NCBI GenBank assembly: GCA_002314325.1
Contig: DCFC01000013.1
Coordinates: forward strand, 6,602-70,601
Length of the DNA: 64,000 nucleotides
Source of the DNA: Megamonas hypermegale
GTDB taxonomy: Bacteria > Bacillota > Negativicutes > Selenomonadales > Selenomonadaceae
Direction of reading: 5' to 3'
Part shown: in pieces, positions 1-64,000 of the stretch
Position numbering within the stretch: the stretch's first letter is position 1
Layout of the letters: every line of letters begins with the position of its first letter
Notes under the pieces: model-generated
What the model was told of the DNA's origin: nothing
Databases searched by the model: none
The model's input: the letters and a program-made list of their open reading frames with translations, nothing else
Translations under genes and position numbers: made by a program

Positions 1-70
1 TACGATAGGTATATGTTACACCTTTTTTGGCTTCTCTTTTGTAAACTAAGATTTTCCCTTGTGTTGCCAT
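1..70 (-). CDS. N-terminus of an integrase-like gene, cut by the window edge
   Basis: An ATG at 70..68 opens 23 codons running off the left edge, beginning MATQGKILVYKREAKK. Its ribosome site AGGTGA lies 6 nt upstream. A short basic start followed by a Gly-x-Thr-Tyr-x-Tyr stretch is common at the N-terminus of phage tyrosine integrases with an arm-binding domain. The position, divergent from the immunity side at the prophage edge, fits that role. If correct, the left attachment site lies outside the window. Only 23 residues are visible, so the identification is an inference. Confidence 0.5.
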   Translation of the reverse strand, partial: MATQGKILVYKREAKKGVTYTYR

Positions 71-34140: not shown

Positions 34141-34848
34141 ATGGCACAAGATTATAATAAAATATTTGCTTCTGGCGCGTCGTCCACTCAAGAGTGGACG
34201 GATGAAAACTATTTGAAAGGATGGGGGTATTTAGGACAGACGCCGCCGCCATATCAGCTGTTTGACGCGCTGTTTAAACGACTGGATTTAAAAACTCAGG
34301 AGTTAAACTCAAATCAAAATAATATTGCTAATAATTATTTGCCATTGACAGGTGGAACAATGGATGGTTTACTTAGTCTTTTTGCCGGTTCTACGATACC
34401 GACACCAGATGCAGGTGATAACAGCAAAAAAATAGTAAATTCCGAGTGGGTGCAAACGTGGGTTAAGAATTTTATAAATGCGCTAGATGGTAATTTACAA
34501 GTACAATGGAGTAGCAGCACATTCACCGTGCCAGCATTAGGCATTACCGGATTAATGGCACAAAACGGCTATATTAGTCTTGGTAAGCTGTTTGGCGGTC
34601 TAATTCTACAGTGGGGAATAGTAAATGTTTCTACGATTGTTCAAACATATTATGTTACGGGAACAAAGACGTTAGCCATTTCTTTTAAATCACCTTTTAT
34701 AGCCGTAGCAACACATAGAGGTGCAGGCTCAAGTACAACTGTAGTAAATAGACTTGATACTACAATAATAGGAGCAAGATTGGGAATGCCTGGAGAAAAA
34801 CCCATAAAATTACCGTGGGCTGCTCATTATATTGCTATAGGTATTTAA
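34141..34848 (+). CDS. Tail fibre with switchable C-terminus
   Basis: 235 residues. The constant part (1-156) contains GWGYLGQTPPPYQLFDALF, a coiled segment and LPLTGGTMDG, typical of fibre shafts. Residues 157-159 (QWG) are encoded by the inversion site at 34608-34617. The current variable tip (160-235) has the pattern of gp53-like receptor-binding ends and finishes HYIAIGI. Seven alternative tips lie downstream as silent cassettes, all of which would join in frame at QWG after inversion. AAAGGAGATG precedes ATG 34141. Confidence 0.85.
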   Translation: MAQDYNKIFASGASSTQEWTDENYLKGWGYLGQTPPPYQLFDALFKRLDLKTQELNSNQNNIANNYLPLTGGTMDGLLSLFAGSTIPTPDAGDNSKKIVNSEWVQTWVKNFINALDGNLQVQWSSSTFTVPALGITGLMAQNGYISLGKLFGGLILQWGIVNVSTIVQTYYVTGTKTLAISFKSPFIAVATHRGAGSSTTVVNRLDTTIIGARLGMPGEKPIKLPWAAHYIAIGI

Positions 34849-35103
34849 ATTATTATATCCAATGGCAATCCATAAAACATTTGTTACGCTTGTTCCTGGA
34901 ACATAAGTATGTCCTGTTTCATAGTCTATTAGTATTTGTAGTCCATTGGCGTTGGCGTTTTGAATGTATGGAACTATTACGATATCCGGTATATCACCGC
35001 TGTTAATAGTGGCATTACTCCAAAGATAACCGGGCATTGTAATATTAAAAGGTACTTGGTATGGTGTAGCATCTATTCGCATACTCACATTATTTCCCCA
35101 CTG
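34810..35103 (-). other. Silent fibre-tip cassette S2
   Basis: Opens at QWG on the minus strand (NNVSMRIDATPYQVPFNIT) and reads NVLWIAIGY before running on to a stop antisense to the end of the expressed tip (overlap 34810-34848). It forms a convergent pair with the expressed tip between sites 34608 and 35104, so a single 497-bp inversion would swap the two. It has no start signal of its own in use. Confidence 0.8.
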
Positions 35104-35116
35104 TCGAATACCTGAA

Positions 35117-35347
35117 CAGTGGGGATTTAACAATAATATAACAGGCGGGAGCGATGATTATGATATAACTTATCCAATATCTTTCTCTAATTTTTCCGTA
35201 ATCATGTCTTTTCCATATAATAGTTCTAAAGGTGATTCCTACGATTTTTTTGGTGTTATAAAAGGAACAGAAACATTACAAGGATGTACGGTACATTTTT
35301 CTCAAGGCAGCGGAATGGGTATTTATTTTTTGGTAATAGGAAGTTAA
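35117..35347 (+). other. Silent fibre-tip cassette S3
   Basis: The only other plus-orientation cassette: QWG-FNNNITGGSDDYDITYP to IYFLVIGS, 76 residues. There is no start codon near the site. It is bounded by the plus site at 35116 and converges on S4, with the two stop codons overlapping at 35344-35347. Expression would need two inversions, or deletion between the directly repeated plus sites. Confidence 0.8.
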
Positions 35348-35565
35348 TATCCAATAGCAAACCAGTCTACGGTATGAGTCCCGGTTGTATTTTCATCGTC
35401 TTTCCCTACTTCAAAAGAATTTAGAGAAATTTTACTAAAACCTAATGCATAATTAACAGTTCGAGCAGCGTGAGAACCAGTTATTTTGTAAAATGAAATA
35501 AACGTTATCGGTAAGTTTTGTAATACGTATTTTGCGTTAGAAGGAATAGTTGATGTTCCCCACTG
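35344..35565 (-). other. Silent fibre-tip cassette S4
   Basis: QWG-TSTIPSNAKYVLQNLPITF to VDWFAIGY, 73 residues. It has the ITF strand and WFAIG ending shared with other tips. Inversion between 34608 and 35566 would place it after the fibre shaft. Confidence 0.8.
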
Positions 35566-35566
35566 T

Positions 35567-35767
35567 TTATACACCAAAAACAATATAGCTACACGATGTA
35601 TCAGGATAATTATTGTTTAAATAAATGGTATTGGTTGTTAAATCTCGTATTGTTGTGCTACTTGTAGAACTAGCTCCGGGACCCTCCACCGCGACACCTC
35701 TAAACGGCTGTTTGGTAAAAGTAATAGGTAAAGATAAAACAACATTTGCACTACCGTTTCCCCACTG
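35567..35767 (-). other. Silent fibre-tip cassette S5
   Basis: QWG-NGSANVVLSLPITFTKQPF to SYIVFGV, 66 residues, the shortest tip. Its stop codon lies one base from the S4 site, so cassettes are packed without spacer. Confidence 0.8.
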
Positions 35768-35980
35768 TTACTTACCACAAGCATACCATCTAATTGAGTG
35801 AGCAGTCTCTGCAGGGTCTGATAATCCCGTAACAAAATTTTTGTTTGTTATGTTAGCTACCTTAGATGGAAAGTTCGACGATGAACTGCTTGCTAATACA
35901 GAAAAAACACTAGTAAAAGTTATTGCGAATGTTACAGTAATATCTTTTTCTTGATTTATATTTAAAATACTTCCCCACTG
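35768..35980 (-). other. Silent fibre-tip cassette S6
   Basis: QWG-SILNINQEKDITVTFAITF to IRWYACGK, 70 residues. The last base of its TAA stop is the first base of the S5 site, so site and stop overlap. Confidence 0.8.
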
Positions 35981-35981
35981 T

Positions 35982-36200
35982 TTAAAAGCCCGCAGTTAAG
36001 TAATCTATTGTAAACGTACCAGAAATTGTATTAGTTTTGCGTACCGTCAGTTTTGTAAGATTTCCGACGTTTACGCCGAAACTATCATGCCCATCTAGTG
36101 CTATATGTGTGGCTGTTGCTCTATAAAACTGTGTATATGCCACGGCAAGTGTATTTTCACCGGTTAAATTTCCGGGCTGTATCTCAATACTTCCCCACTG
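35982..36200 (-). other. Silent fibre-tip cassette S7
   Basis: QWG-SIEIQPGNLTGENTLAVAY to IDYLTAGF, 72 residues. A start codon upstream in the same frame is coincidental, because it lies inside S8. Confidence 0.8.
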
Positions 36201-36201
36201 T

Positions 36202-36459
36202 TTAGCATCCAATAGCAAACCAATTAAAAGTAGGATTTGAATCTGGTCTTGTTCCGCCGACGTCATTAATGCCGCGACCTCTAGCTCTAGCTTGATAAAG
36301 TCCGATTAATCCTATACCAATCAAAGATTGAATTATATTACCACTGGTATTATCTACATTGAAAACATCTGTTGCAGTTATTATCCCTAGATTTTTAAAG
36401 GCAATCGGTAGAGAAAATAACGCATAATTATTACCAGCACATGTAGCTGTTCCCCACTG
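36202..36459 (-). other. Silent fibre-tip cassette S8
   Basis: QWG-TATCAGNNYALFSLPIAF to FNWFAIGC, 85 residues, with a Gly/Arg-rich loop. It is the outermost cassette; its site at 36451-36460 ends the array 39 bp before the next gene. Confidence 0.8.
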
Positions 36460-36498
36460 TAAATAATGAATACATAATAAAAGAAAGGATTGATAAAA

Positions 36499-36915
36499 TT
36501 GATAACATATTTTTGTAAATTTAACGAAAACGGCGAGCGTGAGGCTTCCGTTCCGTCTACCATGTTGAATAATTATGGCGGTAAAGAAAAACTGATTTCT
36601 GATGGATATATTGAGATATCCGACGAAGATTACCAGTATTATGTAGGTAACAAAGGACAAGGCGACAATGGTACAGGCTATATCCGCGACAGTGCGACCG
36701 GTAAGCCGATTTCTGCGCCTGCTAGGGTAATTACATTAGAGGAACAGGCAAACGCGCTTAAATCAGAGTATGAAACTAACATTAAAGCAATCGATGAAGC
36801 AATTCAGATTGCAAAAAATAACGGCGATACTGAATATGTTGCTGAATTACAACAGGAACGACAAAATACATTAGATGAATATGCGACAAAACTGGAGGAA
36901 TTAAATAATGCTTAA
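36499..36915 (+). CDS. Fibre-associated protein, possible assembly chaperone
   Basis: 138 residues. The N-terminal half (YFCKFNENGEREASVPSTML) resembles small phage tail proteins. The C-terminal half is a coiled coil (LEEQANALKSEYETNIKAID). TTG 36499 lies 9 nt from AAAGGA; the TTG at 36490 abuts it. It sits just outside the invertible array, where fibre chaperones are usual. Confidence 0.5.
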   Translation: MITYFCKFNENGEREASVPSTMLNNYGGKEKLISDGYIEISDEDYQYYVGNKGQGDNGTGYIRDSATGKPISAPARVITLEEQANALKSEYETNIKAIDEAIQIAKNNGDTEYVAELQQERQNTLDEYATKLEELNNA

Positions 36916-37072
36916 ATTTTGTACTTTTTGTGGAAGAAAACTTGATGCAGAAGGCTTTTGCACTAATCCAAAATGTCCGGATTACAAGCGTAAGGAAATT
37001 ATACAAACAGAAAAAATTGCATTGGCAGAAAAAGCAAAAAGCACCGCTAATCCCAATAACGACAAGGGTTAA
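36908..37072 (+). CDS. Small zinc-ribbon protein
   Basis: 54 residues: MLKFCTFCGRKLDAEGFC, then NPKCPDYKR, two CxxC-type pairs, and a Lys/Ala-rich tail. The start overlaps the preceding gene's stop. Its last codons form the left arm of the late-operon terminator. Found at the end of many Firmicutes fibre operons; role unknown. Confidence 0.55.
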   Translation: MLKFCTFCGRKLDAEGFCTNPKCPDYKRKEIIQTEKIALAEKAKSTANPNNDKG

Positions 37073-37083
37073 GAGGTGCTTTT
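37037..37083 (+). terminator. Late-operon terminator
   Basis: AAAAGCACC (37037-37045) pairs with GGTGCTTTT (37075-37083). An inner TAATCCC/GGGTTA pair extends the structure and Ts follow. It closes the structural operon before the opposing recombinase gene. Confidence 0.7.
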
Positions 37084-37189
37084 ATTATGCCAAAAATTAT
37101 ATTACCGTATTTGTGCCGTGTTCCGCCTTAGAAAATAAAGGGATATGCACATTTTACGGAAAAATATTAACGCCGCATTAGTGCCGGAT

Positions 37190-38236
37190 TTAGTATTTAA
37201 AGACTATTAAATCCATTGCCTTTTTAAGCTGGTGCAGGTCTTTATGCGTGTAATGTTTTTCTGTTATGCTACTGCTGGCATGTCCTAGTATTCTTTTTAT
37301 TGCGGTCGGATTAGCATCCGCATTATTCAATAAACTTGCTAATGTATGTCTGCACTCGTGGGGCGTATGGCGTTTTATTTTCAAGTCCGCTAGTGTTCTA
37401 TCAAAACGAGTACGAAAACGGCTGTAATTAAGCCGTGCACCGCTACTATCCGTGGCAATGTATTTATTGTTTTCTGCTAACAGTTCTATCCAAAACAGCA
37501 ATGTCTGCTTGTGTATCGGGATAATTCTATTTCTGCCGGCTTCCGTCTTACTTTCACGAATTATTAAATATCGCTGTCGGATTTTAATATCGGACCGTTC
37601 AATATTCAAAAATTCGCTGGGGCGTGTTCCTAACATCATATGCATTAAAATCATTTTTGCATATCGGTGTTCATCAGTAGCACGAAACAATTTATAAATC
37701 TGCCGTGTGTTGAATATGGTTTTCTTATAGACTTTTTTATCTTTGTCTATATCAACATATCGGCTTATATCTCGTTCCGGTGGAATTATTTCATACTTGA
37801 CCGCATAATTGTACATGTGGTGCAAAACTTGCCGCGCCTTTTTCTGGGTGCTGTAACCTGCGCCGGTATCGTGAATATCTCGGATAGCAGCTTGCAAATC
37901 TCCGATACGGATTTTGGCAAATTGCTTATCGTATAACCGTTTTAAATGGTTATATGCGGCAGTATAACTTTGCTGGGTATGCGGCTTAATGCGTGGGTAC
38001 AGATAGGCTTTAACTAAAGTAAATAACTCGGAAAATGTTATTTCAGACGGGGAGAACAACAACGGGTTTTTATTGTACTCACAAAGAAAAGCAAGCGCGC
38101 TTTCATAGTTGGCTTCATAGCCAATAACTTTCTGCCGTCCGTCAATCCATTTTCTTATTTCAAATGGTTTACGGCGATTGCCGGATTTCTTAGTAGTAGA
38201 GCCAAATCCATTCGGTAATTTTAATCTTTTATTCAA
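37190..38236 (-). CDS. Tyrosine recombinase, probable fibre-cassette invertase
   Basis: 348 residues. An N-terminal arm/DNA-binding region (LKLPNGFGSTTKKSGNRRKP) precedes a SAM-like core-binding domain. The catalytic domain has Arg in LGTRPSEFL, Lys in ESKTEAGR, HxxR in HECRHTLASLL, His in ILGHASSSITEKHYTH and Tyr in the same stretch, so all catalytic residues are present. TTG 38236 is 9 nt from AAAGGAG. It lies between the array and the lysis genes rather than at the prophage edge, where another integrase-like gene starts. An Rci-like role on the ten-base sites is inferred; being the prophage integrase is the alternative. Confidence 0.8.
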   Translation of the reverse strand: MNKRLKLPNGFGSTTKKSGNRRKPFEIRKWIDGRQKVIGYEANYESALAFLCEYNKNPLLFSPSEITFSELFTLVKAYLYPRIKPHTQQSYTAAYNHLKRLYDKQFAKIRIGDLQAAIRDIHDTGAGYSTQKKARQVLHHMYNYAVKYEIIPPERDISRYVDIDKDKKVYKKTIFNTRQIYKLFRATDEHRYAKMILMHMMLGTRPSEFLNIERSDIKIRQRYLIIRESKTEAGRNRIIPIHKQTLLFWIELLAENNKYIATDSSGARLNYSRFRTRFDRTLADLKIKRHTPHECRHTLASLLNNADANPTAIKRILGHASSSITEKHYTHKDLHQLKKAMDLIVFKY

Positions 38237-38276
38237 ATTAATCACACTCCTTTAATAGGAGTTTAAAGGAGTATCT

Positions 38277-39041: not shown

Positions 39042-39257
39042 ATGACATTAGATGAAGCAATTAAACACTGCAAAGAAAAATCAAACGGTTGTTCCAAATG
39101 CGCATATGAACATAAATTATTATATGAGTGGCTATCTGAACTAAAAGAACTTCGTGAAATAACTATACAGAAAGACAGAAAAACTGTATTAAATCCATTT
39201 CATGGCTTCACTGGTGTGTTCTGTGGATTTCAGAGAAAGACAGAAAAACTGTATTAA
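39042..39257 (+). CDS. Small phage protein with duplicated 3' end
   Basis: 71 residues. MTLDEAIKHCKEKS and CSKCAYEHKLLYEWLSELKE match short helical proteins often next to phage lysis genes, which end soon after this motif. The last 25 residues come from a 65-bp tandem unit (31-bp repeat plus 34 bp), so the end is probably abnormal. AGGAGAATACAA precedes ATG 39042. Confidence 0.5.
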   Translation: MTLDEAIKHCKEKSNGCSKCAYEHKLLYEWLSELKELREITIQKDRKTVLNPFHGFTGVFCGFQRKTEKLY

Positions 39258-39264
39258 ATCCATT
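39169..39264 (+). repeat. Two perfect 31-bp direct repeats
   Basis: Copies at 39169-39199 and 39234-39264 are identical; the 34 bp between them is unique. The first base blocks on each outer side differ. The repeat contains CAG-AAAAA-CTG. The second copy provides the stop of the small gene. The spacing resembles a two-repeat CRISPR unit but a simple duplication is more likely. Confidence 0.6.
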
Positions 39265-41011: not shown

Positions 41012-41278
41012 TTATCTGCGATGTCTCGGCGGTGGAGGTGGCGGCGGAGCCGGTCTTTTCGGTGCCGGTTTAATTTTGTGATGCGGCGGAGGTGGTGCCT
41101 TTTTCCAGCCGGGCGCTTTATGATGCGGCGGAGGCGGCGGTGCCATTCTGTGTCTAGGTGGCGGCGGAGGCGGTGCTGCTTCCGTCGTGCTAGTGCTTAT
41201 TACATAACCGATTGGCGTTGCCAGAAAACACGCCATAGTCAAAATACCGACAGATTTTCTAATTTTGTCCTTCAACAT
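41012..41278 (-). CDS. Pro/His-rich exported protein
   Basis: 88 residues. A signal peptide (MLKDKIRKSVGILTMACFLA) is followed by a tail made almost only of Pro, His, Lys and Arg with runs such as PPPPPPRHR. ATG 41278 is 8 nt from AAAGGAG; the upstream ATG 41296 precedes that site. Clustered His could bind metal; the polyproline tail could span or stick to the wall. Similar Pro/Lys repeats occur in the gene at 62801. Confidence 0.6.
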   Translation of the reverse strand: MLKDKIRKSVGILTMACFLATPIGYVISTSTTEAAPPPPPPRHRMAPPPPPHHKAPGWKKAPPPPHHKIKPAPKRPAPPPPPPPRHRR

Positions 41279-41335
41279 ACGGAAAACTCCTTTCATTAAT
41301 ATTTATTACAAATAATATTCGCGTTATAAACAGTT

Positions 41336-62800: not shown

Positions 62801-64000
62801 TTATAAAGTTTCTACATCATAGAAACTGTCAGCCTGATTATTGAAAAATCTCATATTGTACGCCATATAAAAAGCCATTTCCGCCATTGCGGCAATATCC
62901 GGTTCCAGCGCATAGACATTCATCGTATCCATGCGGTTGGAATTTTTGTATTTACTATGGTAATCGCCGTACAAGTTGGTGAATGTAACTGTATGCGCAT
63001 TCAGATTGTACCGAAATTCCCATGTATTCATCTGTCTGTCCATCGGTTTTGAAGTATCCGTGCTGTATTCGTTGACTTTTATCGTGTAGAACGGCGGATT
63101 GTAGTTTAAAACCTTCAGCGATGTTTTGTCCAGATAGTAGTCGATATGCGCATCATTTGCACCGTCGTAGCTGTTGCAGTAAATCTGCACGTATTTGTCA
63201 GGATATTCAAGGTCAAGCCCTGCACAGGCAAAGCCCATATCATTAAGTTCGGCAGTGAGAGCGGCGTTGTCTTTGGCAAAGCTCATTCTTTCTAGGAATA
63301 TGCCCGTCAGAATTCTTTCCCATACACTCGGTTTGTCTTCTTCATATTCATAATCGGATGGTGGTGGAGGCGGTGCCTCTCTCGATACCAGCGTTATGCT
63401 CGGCGGAGCAGGAAGCACTGTAAATTTTTTCGACGGTTTTCTCGGCGGTTTGACATCCGGTCGTGGTCCTTTTGGTGGCTTAATATCCGGTTTCGGTCCT
63501 TTTTGATTGTGCATATTTGGTTTCGGCGGTTTTACTGTCGGCGGCTTGAAGCCATCGCCCGGTTTTGTCGGTTTAATATCCGGCCGCGGTCCTTTCGGCG
63601 GCTTAATGTCTGGTTTTGGTCCTTTCTGATTGTGCATATTCGGTTTTGGCGGTTTTACTGCCGGCGGCTTAAAGCCATCGCCCGGTTTTGCTGGCTTAAT
63701 ATCCGGTTTCGGTGGTTTTACTGTTGGCGGTTTAAAGCCATTGCCCGGTTTTGTCGGTTTAACGTTCGGTTTTGTTACCGGCGGTTTAAAGCCGTTACCC
63801 GGTTTTGTTGTCGGCGGCTTGAAATTATTATTCGGCTTTGTCGCAGGTTTTGTCATCGGCGGCTTAAAGTTGTTATTCGGTTTCGGTCTGTTTATATTTG
63901 GTCGTGCTGGTTTATTTACCTGCGGTTTTGGCCTGTTCACATTCGGTCGCGCCGGTTTATTTACCTGCGGCTTCGGTCTGTTTACATTCGGTCGCGGCGT
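62801..64000 (-). CDS. Pro/Lys-repeat protein with exported-type domain, partial
   Basis: The frame is open to the right edge, so the start lies outside the window; a GTG at 63940 is inside the repeats and is not the start. About 215 residues are RPNxNRPKPQVNKPA and KPGxGFKPPxxKPPKP repeats. A 180-residue C-terminal domain follows (YDGANDAHIDYYLDKTSLKV to MAYNMRFFNNQ), homologous in order to the protein at 42603. The repeat part would form an extended, basic, wall-crossing stalk. Role unknown. Confidence 0.65.
   Translation of the reverse strand, partial: TPRPNVNRPKPQVNKPARPNVNRPKPQVNKPARPNINRPKPNNNFKPPMTKPATKPNNNFKPPTTKPGNGFKPPVTKPNVKPTKPGNGFKPPTVKPPKPDIKPAKPGDGFKPPAVKPPKPNMHNQKGPKPDIKPPKGPRPDIKPTKPGDGFKPPTVKPPKPNMHNQKGPKPDIKPPKGPRPDVKPPRKPSKKFTVLPAPPSITLVSREAPPPPPSDYEYEEDKPSVWERILTGIFLERMSFAKDNAALTAELNDMGFACAGLDLEYPDKYVQIYCNSYDGANDAHIDYYLDKTSLKVLNYNPPFYTIKVNEYSTDTSKPMDRQMNTWEFRYNLNAHTVTFTNLYGDYHSKYKNSNRMDTMNVYALEPDIAAMAEMAFYMAYNMRFFNNQADSFYDVETL

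What the first reader, a model, noticed from the sequence alone, without database searches (positions are those of the whole stretch)
34141..38236. Tail-fibre shufflon: eight invertible receptor-tip cassettes with their own tyrosine recombinase
Seen: eight identical 10-bp sites ACAGTGGGGA, two plus and six minus, each opening an in-frame Gln-Trp-Gly cassette of 66-97 residues; stops lie 0-1 base before the next site for S5-S8. The one plus site at 34608 lies inside the intact fibre gene. All tips end in an aromatic-x-x-x-Gly-x pattern. A recombinase with all catalytic residues is encoded 0.7 kb away. Known: R64 switches pilin tips by multiple inversion with the tyrosine recombinase Rci; phage G segments use serine invertases. 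Inference: this phage uses a tyrosine-recombinase shufflon to change host receptor binding, with eight possible tips.
Basis: partly seen in the sequence, partly recalled or inferred. Interest (0 to 1): 0.93.

Follow-up and report, generated by a model that had tools for sequence, protein, structure and literature searches.

The report
Eight-tip tail-fibre shufflon of phages
This prophage carries one tail-fibre shaft, eight interchangeable fibre tips and a neighbouring recombinase predicted to flip the tips in and out, so one phage lineage would likely be able to try several bacterial receptors; two sister prophages with a related recombinase show the same four tips rearranged exactly at such sites.

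Summary
Eight exact ACAGTGGGGA sites (two plus, six minus) each open an in-frame Gln-Trp-Gly tip of 66-97 residues; only one follows an intact fibre shaft. A tyrosine recombinase lies 0.7 kb away. Relatives support a multiple-inversion system. (1) Related fibres share the shaft up to QWG and then differ; two carry, joined to a shaft, tips that are silent here (97% and 95% identical). (2) Related recombinases sit beside similar arrays in many Negativicutes prophages, some with other sites and tip families. (3) Sites are uniform within an array but differ between arrays at positions the protein leaves free. (4) One genome holds two prophage copies whose three inter-site segments are 100% identical but ordered a-b-c and a-c-b(inverted), with breakpoints at the 10-bp sites; two inversions explain it. 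Inversion in the window's own phage is untested. The kind is known: Rin of Bifidobacterium and Eggerthella prophages is a predicted tyrosine-recombinase receptor-binding shufflon. This is a larger branch in another phylum, unreported in the papers searched; its recombinase is predicted to have an arm-like N-terminal domain and lacks room for Rci's extra C-terminal domain.

The parts
34141..34848 (+). Tail-fibre gene in its present form: shaft (residues 1-156) joined to tip 1
   Evidence: PF21882 at 149-234; phrog_4209 tail fiber
34608..34617 (+). Site S1, inside the fibre gene at the shaft-tip junction
34609..34848 (+). Tip 1 (79 aa), the one joined to the shaft
34810..35103 (-). Tip 2 (97 aa), silent; reads 14 residues past its usual WIAIGY end and overlaps the end of tip 1
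   Evidence: tip in P0137 is 95% identical over 82 aa
35095..35104 (-). Site S2
35116..35125 (+). Site S3, head to head with S2 over an 11-bp spacer
35117..35347 (+). Tip 3 (76 aa), silent; same orientation as the shaft but not joined to it
35344..35565 (-). Tip 4 (73 aa), silent, back to back with tip 3
35557..35566 (-). Site S4
35567..35767 (-). Tip 5 (66 aa), silent; P0126 carries a 97% identical tip joined to a shaft
35759..35768 (-). Site S5
35768..35980 (-). Tip 6 (70 aa), silent
35972..35981 (-). Site S6
35982..36200 (-). Tip 7 (72 aa), silent; no Pfam fibre match
36192..36201 (-). Site S7
36202..36459 (-). Tip 8 (85 aa), silent
36451..36460 (-). Site S8, outer end of the array
36490..36915 (+). 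Gene after the array, perhaps a fibre assembly protein (guess from position; no significant family match); a homologue lies in the same place in G099
37190..38245 (-). Tyrosine recombinase (351 aa), predicted shufflon invertase
   Evidence: PF00589 E 9e-23; R208, K233, H296, R299, H322, Y332 invariant in 22 homologues; model and fold matches
1..70 (-). First 23 codons of an integrase-like ORF cut off by the window edge; possible separate prophage integrase (unproven)
   Evidence: reading; no Pfam match for so short a piece

Best explanation
The locus is a tail-fibre shufflon: one shaft gene is followed by eight tip cassettes, each opening with the same 10-bp site that also encodes the tip's first residues Gln-Trp-Gly, and the neighbouring tyrosine recombinase is predicted to invert DNA between oppositely oriented sites so that one tip at a time would be fused in frame to the shaft. 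Seven segments lie between the eight sites; by inversion alone all eight tips can in principle reach the shaft, tips 2 and 4-8 in one step and tip 3 in two (symbolic count). The tips probably form the receptor-binding end of the fibre, so a phage population would carry a mixture of host specificities (inferred from the gp53-like fibre domain and from known phage shufflons). The recombinase is probably not the prophage integrase, which in two related prophages appears to be a separate gene at the other end.
For: Exact repeated sites in both orientations with in-frame tips. In 16 aligned related fibres (the first being the window's own) QWG is invariant and the tips beyond do not align; two of them carry tips 97% and 95% identical to silent tips 5 and 2. 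Arrays of the same layout beside related recombinases: 15 of 24 recombinases in the tree neighbourhood against 5 of 111 elsewhere, with four or more tips 12 of 24 against 0 of 111, and 7 of 16 further loci. Sites uniform within arrays and different between arrays at free positions. Genome G253: identical segments in two arrangements with breakpoints at the sites. L094 against L096: a tip block 81% identical over 243 bp is inverted while the recombinase genes are collinear. Separate integrase candidates at the far end of the G099 and G002 prophages.
Against: No read data: inversion in this phage is not observed, and its only near-identical record has the same site order and is probably the same assembly. 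The decisive G253 pair has a recombinase only 34% identical to the window's. 9 of 24 neighbourhood recombinases had no array of three or more tips by the detector (two of the 24 lack 1.2 kb of sequence on one side), and 9 of 16 had none. Tip 2 has lost its usual stop and tip 7 has no fibre-family match. Receptor binding by the tips is not tested.
Confidence: 0.9

Rival explanations
1. The array is real, but the adjacent recombinase is the prophage integrase; another enzyme, perhaps of the host, flips the tips, or they no longer flip.
For: The recombinase family shades into phage integrases at about 30% identity, with an arm-like N-terminal domain predicted. No complete second integrase lies inside the window among the ORFs scanned.
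Against: Related recombinases sit beside the array, in most cases just behind it, with arrays of different site types. In G099 a second integrase with an arm domain (PF14657) lies about 41 kb away, and in G002 an integrase-like ORF about 44 kb away, near the other end of the prophage. An integrase-like start lies at the window's left edge.
Confidence: 0.07
2. The sites are only the conserved codons of a fibre motif (QWG); the cassettes are decayed duplicates without recombination.
For: QWG is a conserved start of the gp53-like domain (the tip matches begin at residue 1), and the site is little longer than the codons for it.
Against: The base before the codons and the free third positions are uniform or nearly so within each array and differ between arrays. 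Arrays with other sites show the same layout. Identical segments are rearranged at the sites in G253. The silent tips are uninterrupted frames, and two have close counterparts joined to a shaft elsewhere.
Confidence: 0.03

Closest known systems
Rin shufflon of Bifidobacterium prophages (PMC6109161, passages read) and of Eggerthella lenta prophages (PMC8778435, passages read)
   Same: Prophage receptor-binding gene with a constant part and several variable C-termini, short asymmetric sites before each (11 bp and 8 bp), a tyrosine recombinase distinct from the integrase; different orders seen among prophages
   Different: Five variable tips in Bifidobacterium, here eight; site sequences differ; the paper describes Rin as lacking the N-terminal arm domain, here one is predicted; other host phylum; fibre domain gp53-like rather than TP901-1-like. 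Direct sequence homology to Rin was not tested
R64 shufflon with Rci (PMC11852207, introduction and passages read)
   Same: Tyrosine recombinase, several segments between oriented sites conserved on one side only, alternative C-termini of an adhesin, double-headed segments (that R64 has these is recalled)
   Different: Conjugative pilus, not phage; 31-nt sfx site against a block of about 10 bp; Rci has an extra C-terminal domain, here 19 residues follow the catalytic Tyr
phiCh1 tail-fibre inversion (PMC8651126, passages read)
   Same: A virus-encoded invertase, discussed there with the tyrosine recombinases, inverts a tail-fibre module
   Different: A single invertible module (recalled) and an archaeal host; here a multi-cassette array
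Gin/Cin/Min tail-fibre inversion, e.g. the FRphi shufflon (PMC13418256, passages read)
   Same: Alternative tail-fibre C-termini, up to six in related loci, shown there to set receptor use
   Different: Gin-type recombinase (serine family by recall and by PMC6109161), other sites

Membership tests
Shufflon (multiple inversion system) | Three or more recombination sites in both orientations separating segments | tested here: met
   Eight exact sites, two plus and six minus
Shufflon (multiple inversion system) | Segments encode alternative in-frame C-termini of one protein | tested here: met
   Eight QWG frames of 66-97 aa; seven of eight match PF21882 at E <= 0.1
Shufflon (multiple inversion system) | Dedicated site-specific recombinase beside the array | tested here: met
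   37190-38245; beside arrays in relatives. That it is dedicated to inversion is inferred
Shufflon (multiple inversion system) | Inversion at the sites in this locus | not testable with these tools
   No reads; the same-order record is not independent. Met in the relative G253
Rin (phage tyrosine-recombinase receptor shufflon) | Tyrosine recombinase separate from the phage integrase | tested here: inconclusive
   In relatives G099 and G002 a second integrase or integrase-like ORF exists; in the window only 23 residues at the left edge
Rin (phage tyrosine-recombinase receptor shufflon) | Recombinase without N-terminal arm-type domain (PMC6109161) | tested here: not met
   The AlphaFold model has strand-strand-strand-helix at 16-59 before the core-binding domain, pLDDT about 70-80; a prediction
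Rin (phage tyrosine-recombinase receptor shufflon) | Short asymmetric site before each variable tip | tested here: met
   10 bp, ACAGTGGGGA; not the Rin sequence TTCCCTAACCC
Rci family (R64) | Extra C-terminal domain after the catalytic domain | tested here: not met
   Protein ends 19 residues after Y332
Rci family (R64) | Sequence homology to Rci | not tested
   Rci was not fetched or compared
Serine invertase systems (Gin, Cin, Min) | Serine recombinase next to the tail-fibre locus | tested here: not met
   The recombinase beside the array is PF00589; no serine recombinase among 26 window ORFs scanned against PHROGs; not all ORFs were scanned

The most novel reading that the evidence does not exclude
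A lineage of phage integrases in Negativicutes has been turned into dedicated tail-fibre invertases, and each branch uses a recombination site written into the codons of the most conserved residues at the shaft-tip junction of whichever tip family it carries (QWG, QGG, VGEL, TDEL, QGI), so that protein motif and DNA site are one and the same and tips can circulate between phages as plug-in cassettes.
Probability: 0.55. Interest if true: 0.75.

Novelty: new variant of a known kind. Interest (0 to 1): 0.62.

Why it matters
It extends the few tyrosine-recombinase receptor shufflons of phages that I found in print (Actinobacteria hosts) to prophages of Negativicutes, with up to eight tips and many recombinase-site pairs to compare. 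It also gives a natural series of site sequences that change with recombinase and tip family, which makes the question of how such recombinases favour inversion over deletion without Rci's extra domain directly testable.

Tried and rejected
Looking for a second arrangement of this phage: the only near-identical record (IMG/VR 3300003155_000423 = G001, L009, L172) has the same eight sites with the same spacing, and the 15.9 kb compared are 100% identical, so it is no independent evidence. A DNA search of public phage genomes found nothing. The recombinase has 82 phage records there, all below 60% identity; of the 30 listed most of the annotated ones are called integrase, some hypothetical protein. 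Three inspected neighbourhoods (Fusobacterium, Butyrivibrio and R. gnavus phages) looked like ordinary integrase contexts.

On inspection two of the three (L304, L221) were not tip arrays and L218 was a two-tip inverted pair. By the stricter tip criterion the arrays in the scan were L280, L282, L286 and L324, all with the recombinase; L280 and L324 are the same contigs as L094 and L096, so only two are new.

The generic detector also called 3-copy arrays at four recombinases outside the neighbourhood (L034, L044, L069, L071). I saw no shared tip motif in their 10-mers and count them as noise, but did not examine them further. L282, listed there among the others, is a true QWG array. Only 22 of 24 and 70 of 111 had at least 1.2 kb on both sides; on that subset the counts are 15 of 22 and 3 of 70. 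The neighbourhood was drawn from the tree after I had seen the arrays, and the Fisher value (2e-10, with L282 and L191 moved into the group) is descriptive only. An earlier detector also flagged L121 and L062 outside the group, with palindromic or AT-rich words. The fibre model was too weak to use (mean pLDDT 56). No Rfam family at gathering score was found at 30-42 kb; promoter- and terminator-like matches were no more than in shuffles.
Full report
What is there. The window holds a tailed-phage prophage: repressor, RecE/RecT and terminase genes, a baseplate J gene, a fibre gene, a holin and an amidase. The fibre gene 34141-34848 contains the first of eight exact copies of ACAGTGGGGA, two plus and six minus. 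Read in one frame each copy encodes Gln-Trp-Gly and opens a frame of 66-97 residues closed by a stop. The tips are 24-38% identical to each other in pairwise global alignment. Only the first follows a fibre shaft. The sites cut the array into seven segments: two double-headed (tips 1/2, tips 3/4), one 11-bp spacer between two head-to-head sites, and four single-tip segments whose stops abut or overlap the next site. A 351-aa tyrosine recombinase lies on the opposite strand 0.7 kb further on; R208, K233, H296, R299, H322 and Y332 are invariant in the 22 aligned sequences, the window's included (that these are the catalytic set is recalled knowledge of the family).

Relatives by protein. Of 1138 database hits of the recombinase, 120 are listed: 35 at 78-95% identity (several of them fragments), one at 68%, 84 at 48-56%. 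The fibre has 136 hits, 120 listed. In 16 of them, the window's own included, QWG is invariant after a shared shaft (LILQWG in 15, IIFQWG in P0135), and the tips beyond do not align. P0126 carries, joined to its shaft, a tip 97% identical to silent tip 5, and P0137 one 95% identical to silent tip 2. So at least two cassettes that are silent here are joined to shafts in relatives.

Relatives by DNA. Arrays of at least three tips next to a related recombinase, with its identity to the window's, site and number of tips: G099 locus 1, 89%, ACAATGGGGA, 4; G099 locus 2 (L207), 33%, ACAGTGGGGA, 5; Phascolarctobacterium sp. ET69 (L013 = G002), 51%, GCAGTGGGG plus T or A, 8; an Anaerovibrio MAG (L020), 45%, 5; L094, 42%, 4; L095, 43%, 3; L096, 43%, 4; L102, 34%, 4; G206 (L205), 45%, 6, one of them short; L282, 46%, CCAGTGGGGA, 3; L286, 45%, 4. 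A Phascolarctobacterium MAG (L198 = G003) has three complete same-way tips and a fourth cut by the contig end. Other site types: CTGTCGGGGA in L171 (4) and CCGTTGGGGA in Megasphaera massiliensis (L017, 3), both before V-G-E tips; CCACCGATGA in Acidaminococcus intestini (L018, 4, T-D-E tips); CAGGGTGGTA in G045 (L201, 6, Q-G-G tips); CTGTGGGAGA in G099 locus 3 (L206, 3, V-G-E tips). Of 16 further loci in the order of G005, 7 carry arrays: L355 4, L358 6 (ACAGGGTGGA), L360 4, L361 4, L362 3 (CCAAGGTATA, Q-G-I tips, 2.6 kb from the recombinase), L364 5, L368 5 (CCAGTGGGGA); 9 do not, some of them at contig ends. Recombinase matches at E <= 1e-60, whether or not an array is present, were found in 7 of 59 genomes (family of G002, profile A1), 6 of 189 (order of G004, profile A1) and 13 of 61 (order of G005, profile A2).

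How tight is the link. A detector blind to the site sequence was run on both sides of 135 distinct recombinases. Arrays of three or more tips: 15 of 24 in the tree neighbourhood of the window's enzyme, 5 of 111 elsewhere, one of these five being the real QWG array L282. Arrays of four or more: 12 of 24 and 0 of 111. With at least 1.2 kb on both sides the counts for three or more are 15 of 22 and 3 of 70. The neighbourhood was chosen after seeing arrays, and the tree puts the shufflon recombinases in more than one place (a 19-member clade with support 0.99; L102, L195 and kin elsewhere), so I claim association, not monophyly.

Why the site is more than a protein motif. Across 62 sites of 13 QWG arrays (L198 seen only in part), the base before the codons and the third base of the Gln codon are identical in every within-array comparison, but in only 67% and 75% of between-array comparisons; for the third base of Gly the figures are 85% and 76%. 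Flanking positions mostly drop to background, except a position four bases before the codons (68% within, 63% between) and one directly after them (58%, 44%). The joint statistic is 0.983 against a permutation mean of 0.859, with 0 of 5000 permutations as high.

Rearrangement in nature. Genome G253 has two prophage copies, L360 and L361. Their array segments of 216, 232 and 441 bp are each 100% identical but stand in the orders a-b-c and a-c-b(inverted). The shaft-side flank is 99.97% and the recombinase-side flank 98.3% identical, so they look like two real copies and not one read twice. Every changed junction changes within ACAGTGGGGA, and two successive inversions suffice. The same tip is joined to the shaft in both. 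The IMG/VR contig behind L102 is 100% identical to L360 over 11.3 kb. Between L094 and L096 a block 81% identical over 243 bp, spanning one tip and both its sites, is inverted while the recombinase genes are collinear at 77%. None of this is the window's own phage.

Mechanism. Shown: the sites, the frames, the recombinase gene, and rearrangement at such sites in a relative. Inferred: that 37190-38245 does it here, that inversion is preferred over deletion, and that the tips bind receptors. By inversion alone 13,440 arrangements are reachable and all eight tips can be expressed, six of the seven silent ones in one step (symbolic count). The conserved side of the site and the variable other side recall sfx of R64, where asymmetry is proposed to restrict Rci to inversion, with an extra C-terminal domain thought to mediate cooperative binding (PMC11852207, introduction). 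Here there is no room for that domain (19 residues follow Tyr332), while an arm-like N-terminal strand-strand-strand-helix is predicted (mean pLDDT 80; best Foldseek hits Tn1549 Int and lambda Int). If inversion is preferred, another means must enforce it.

Integrase or invertase. In G099 an integrase with an arm domain (PF14657) lies about 41 kb away. In G002 a 380-aa integrase-like ORF, recognised only by its motif and N-terminus, lies about 44 kb away beyond the phage genes. At the window's left edge 23 residues of an integrase-like start are visible; too short to prove.

Known or new. Rin (PMC6109161; PMC8778435) is the same kind. phiCh1 (PMC8651126) and FRphi (Gin-type, PMC13418256) are functional analogues. 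Of these papers I saw passages; of PMC11852207 passages and the introduction. My ten searches of the held open-access library listed no paper that, from its title and abstract start, reports such arrays in Negativicutes phages; most subscription papers and all bioRxiv preprints are not held. I therefore call it a new variant of a known kind.

Noticed in passing
L360 and L361 (genome G253): One genome carries two nearly identical prophage regions whose tail-fibre arrays differ only in arrangement at the sites.
   Followed up: yes
L201:7527-8868 (G045): Array with Q-G-G tips in which each CAGGGTGGTA site faces a CCACCCTG copy across a 4-bp CTAT or ATAG spacer, a near-palindromic full site unlike the one-sided sites of the window; the array lies on the 5' side of the recombinase.
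   Followed up: partly
34810-34860: Tip 2 has no stop after its usual WIAIGY end and reads 14 residues on into the end of tip 1, as if a former junction was lost.
   Followed up: no
266-1015: RelE/Gp49-like toxin-family ORF (PF05973) followed by a small helix-turn-helix-like ORF (by eye) near the left edge; looks like a toxin-antitoxin pair.
   Followed up: no
39169-39264: Exact 31-bp direct repeat, 65 bp apart, between holin and amidase genes.
   Followed up: no
41012-41296 (minus): Small ORF (94 aa) very rich in proline and histidine beyond the prophage lysis genes.
   Followed up: no
62801-63996 (minus): Repeat-rich ORF of 379 aa with 45-, 63- and 123-bp tandem repeats and no Pfam match.
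   Followed up: no
P0140, P0141: Proteins with 75-76% identity to about half of the window's fibre carry a tail-collar domain (PF07484), which suggests that the same shaft is used with another tip class.
   Followed up: no
L218:11148-12423: A two-tip inverted QWG pair in a viral contig with no recombinase of this family within 4.5 kb, possibly a classical G-segment-like switch.
   Followed up: no
L011:9905-11050 (Butyrivibrio phage Arawn): Annotated putative reverse transcriptase between tail-side and lysis genes, perhaps a diversity-generating retroelement.
   Followed up: no
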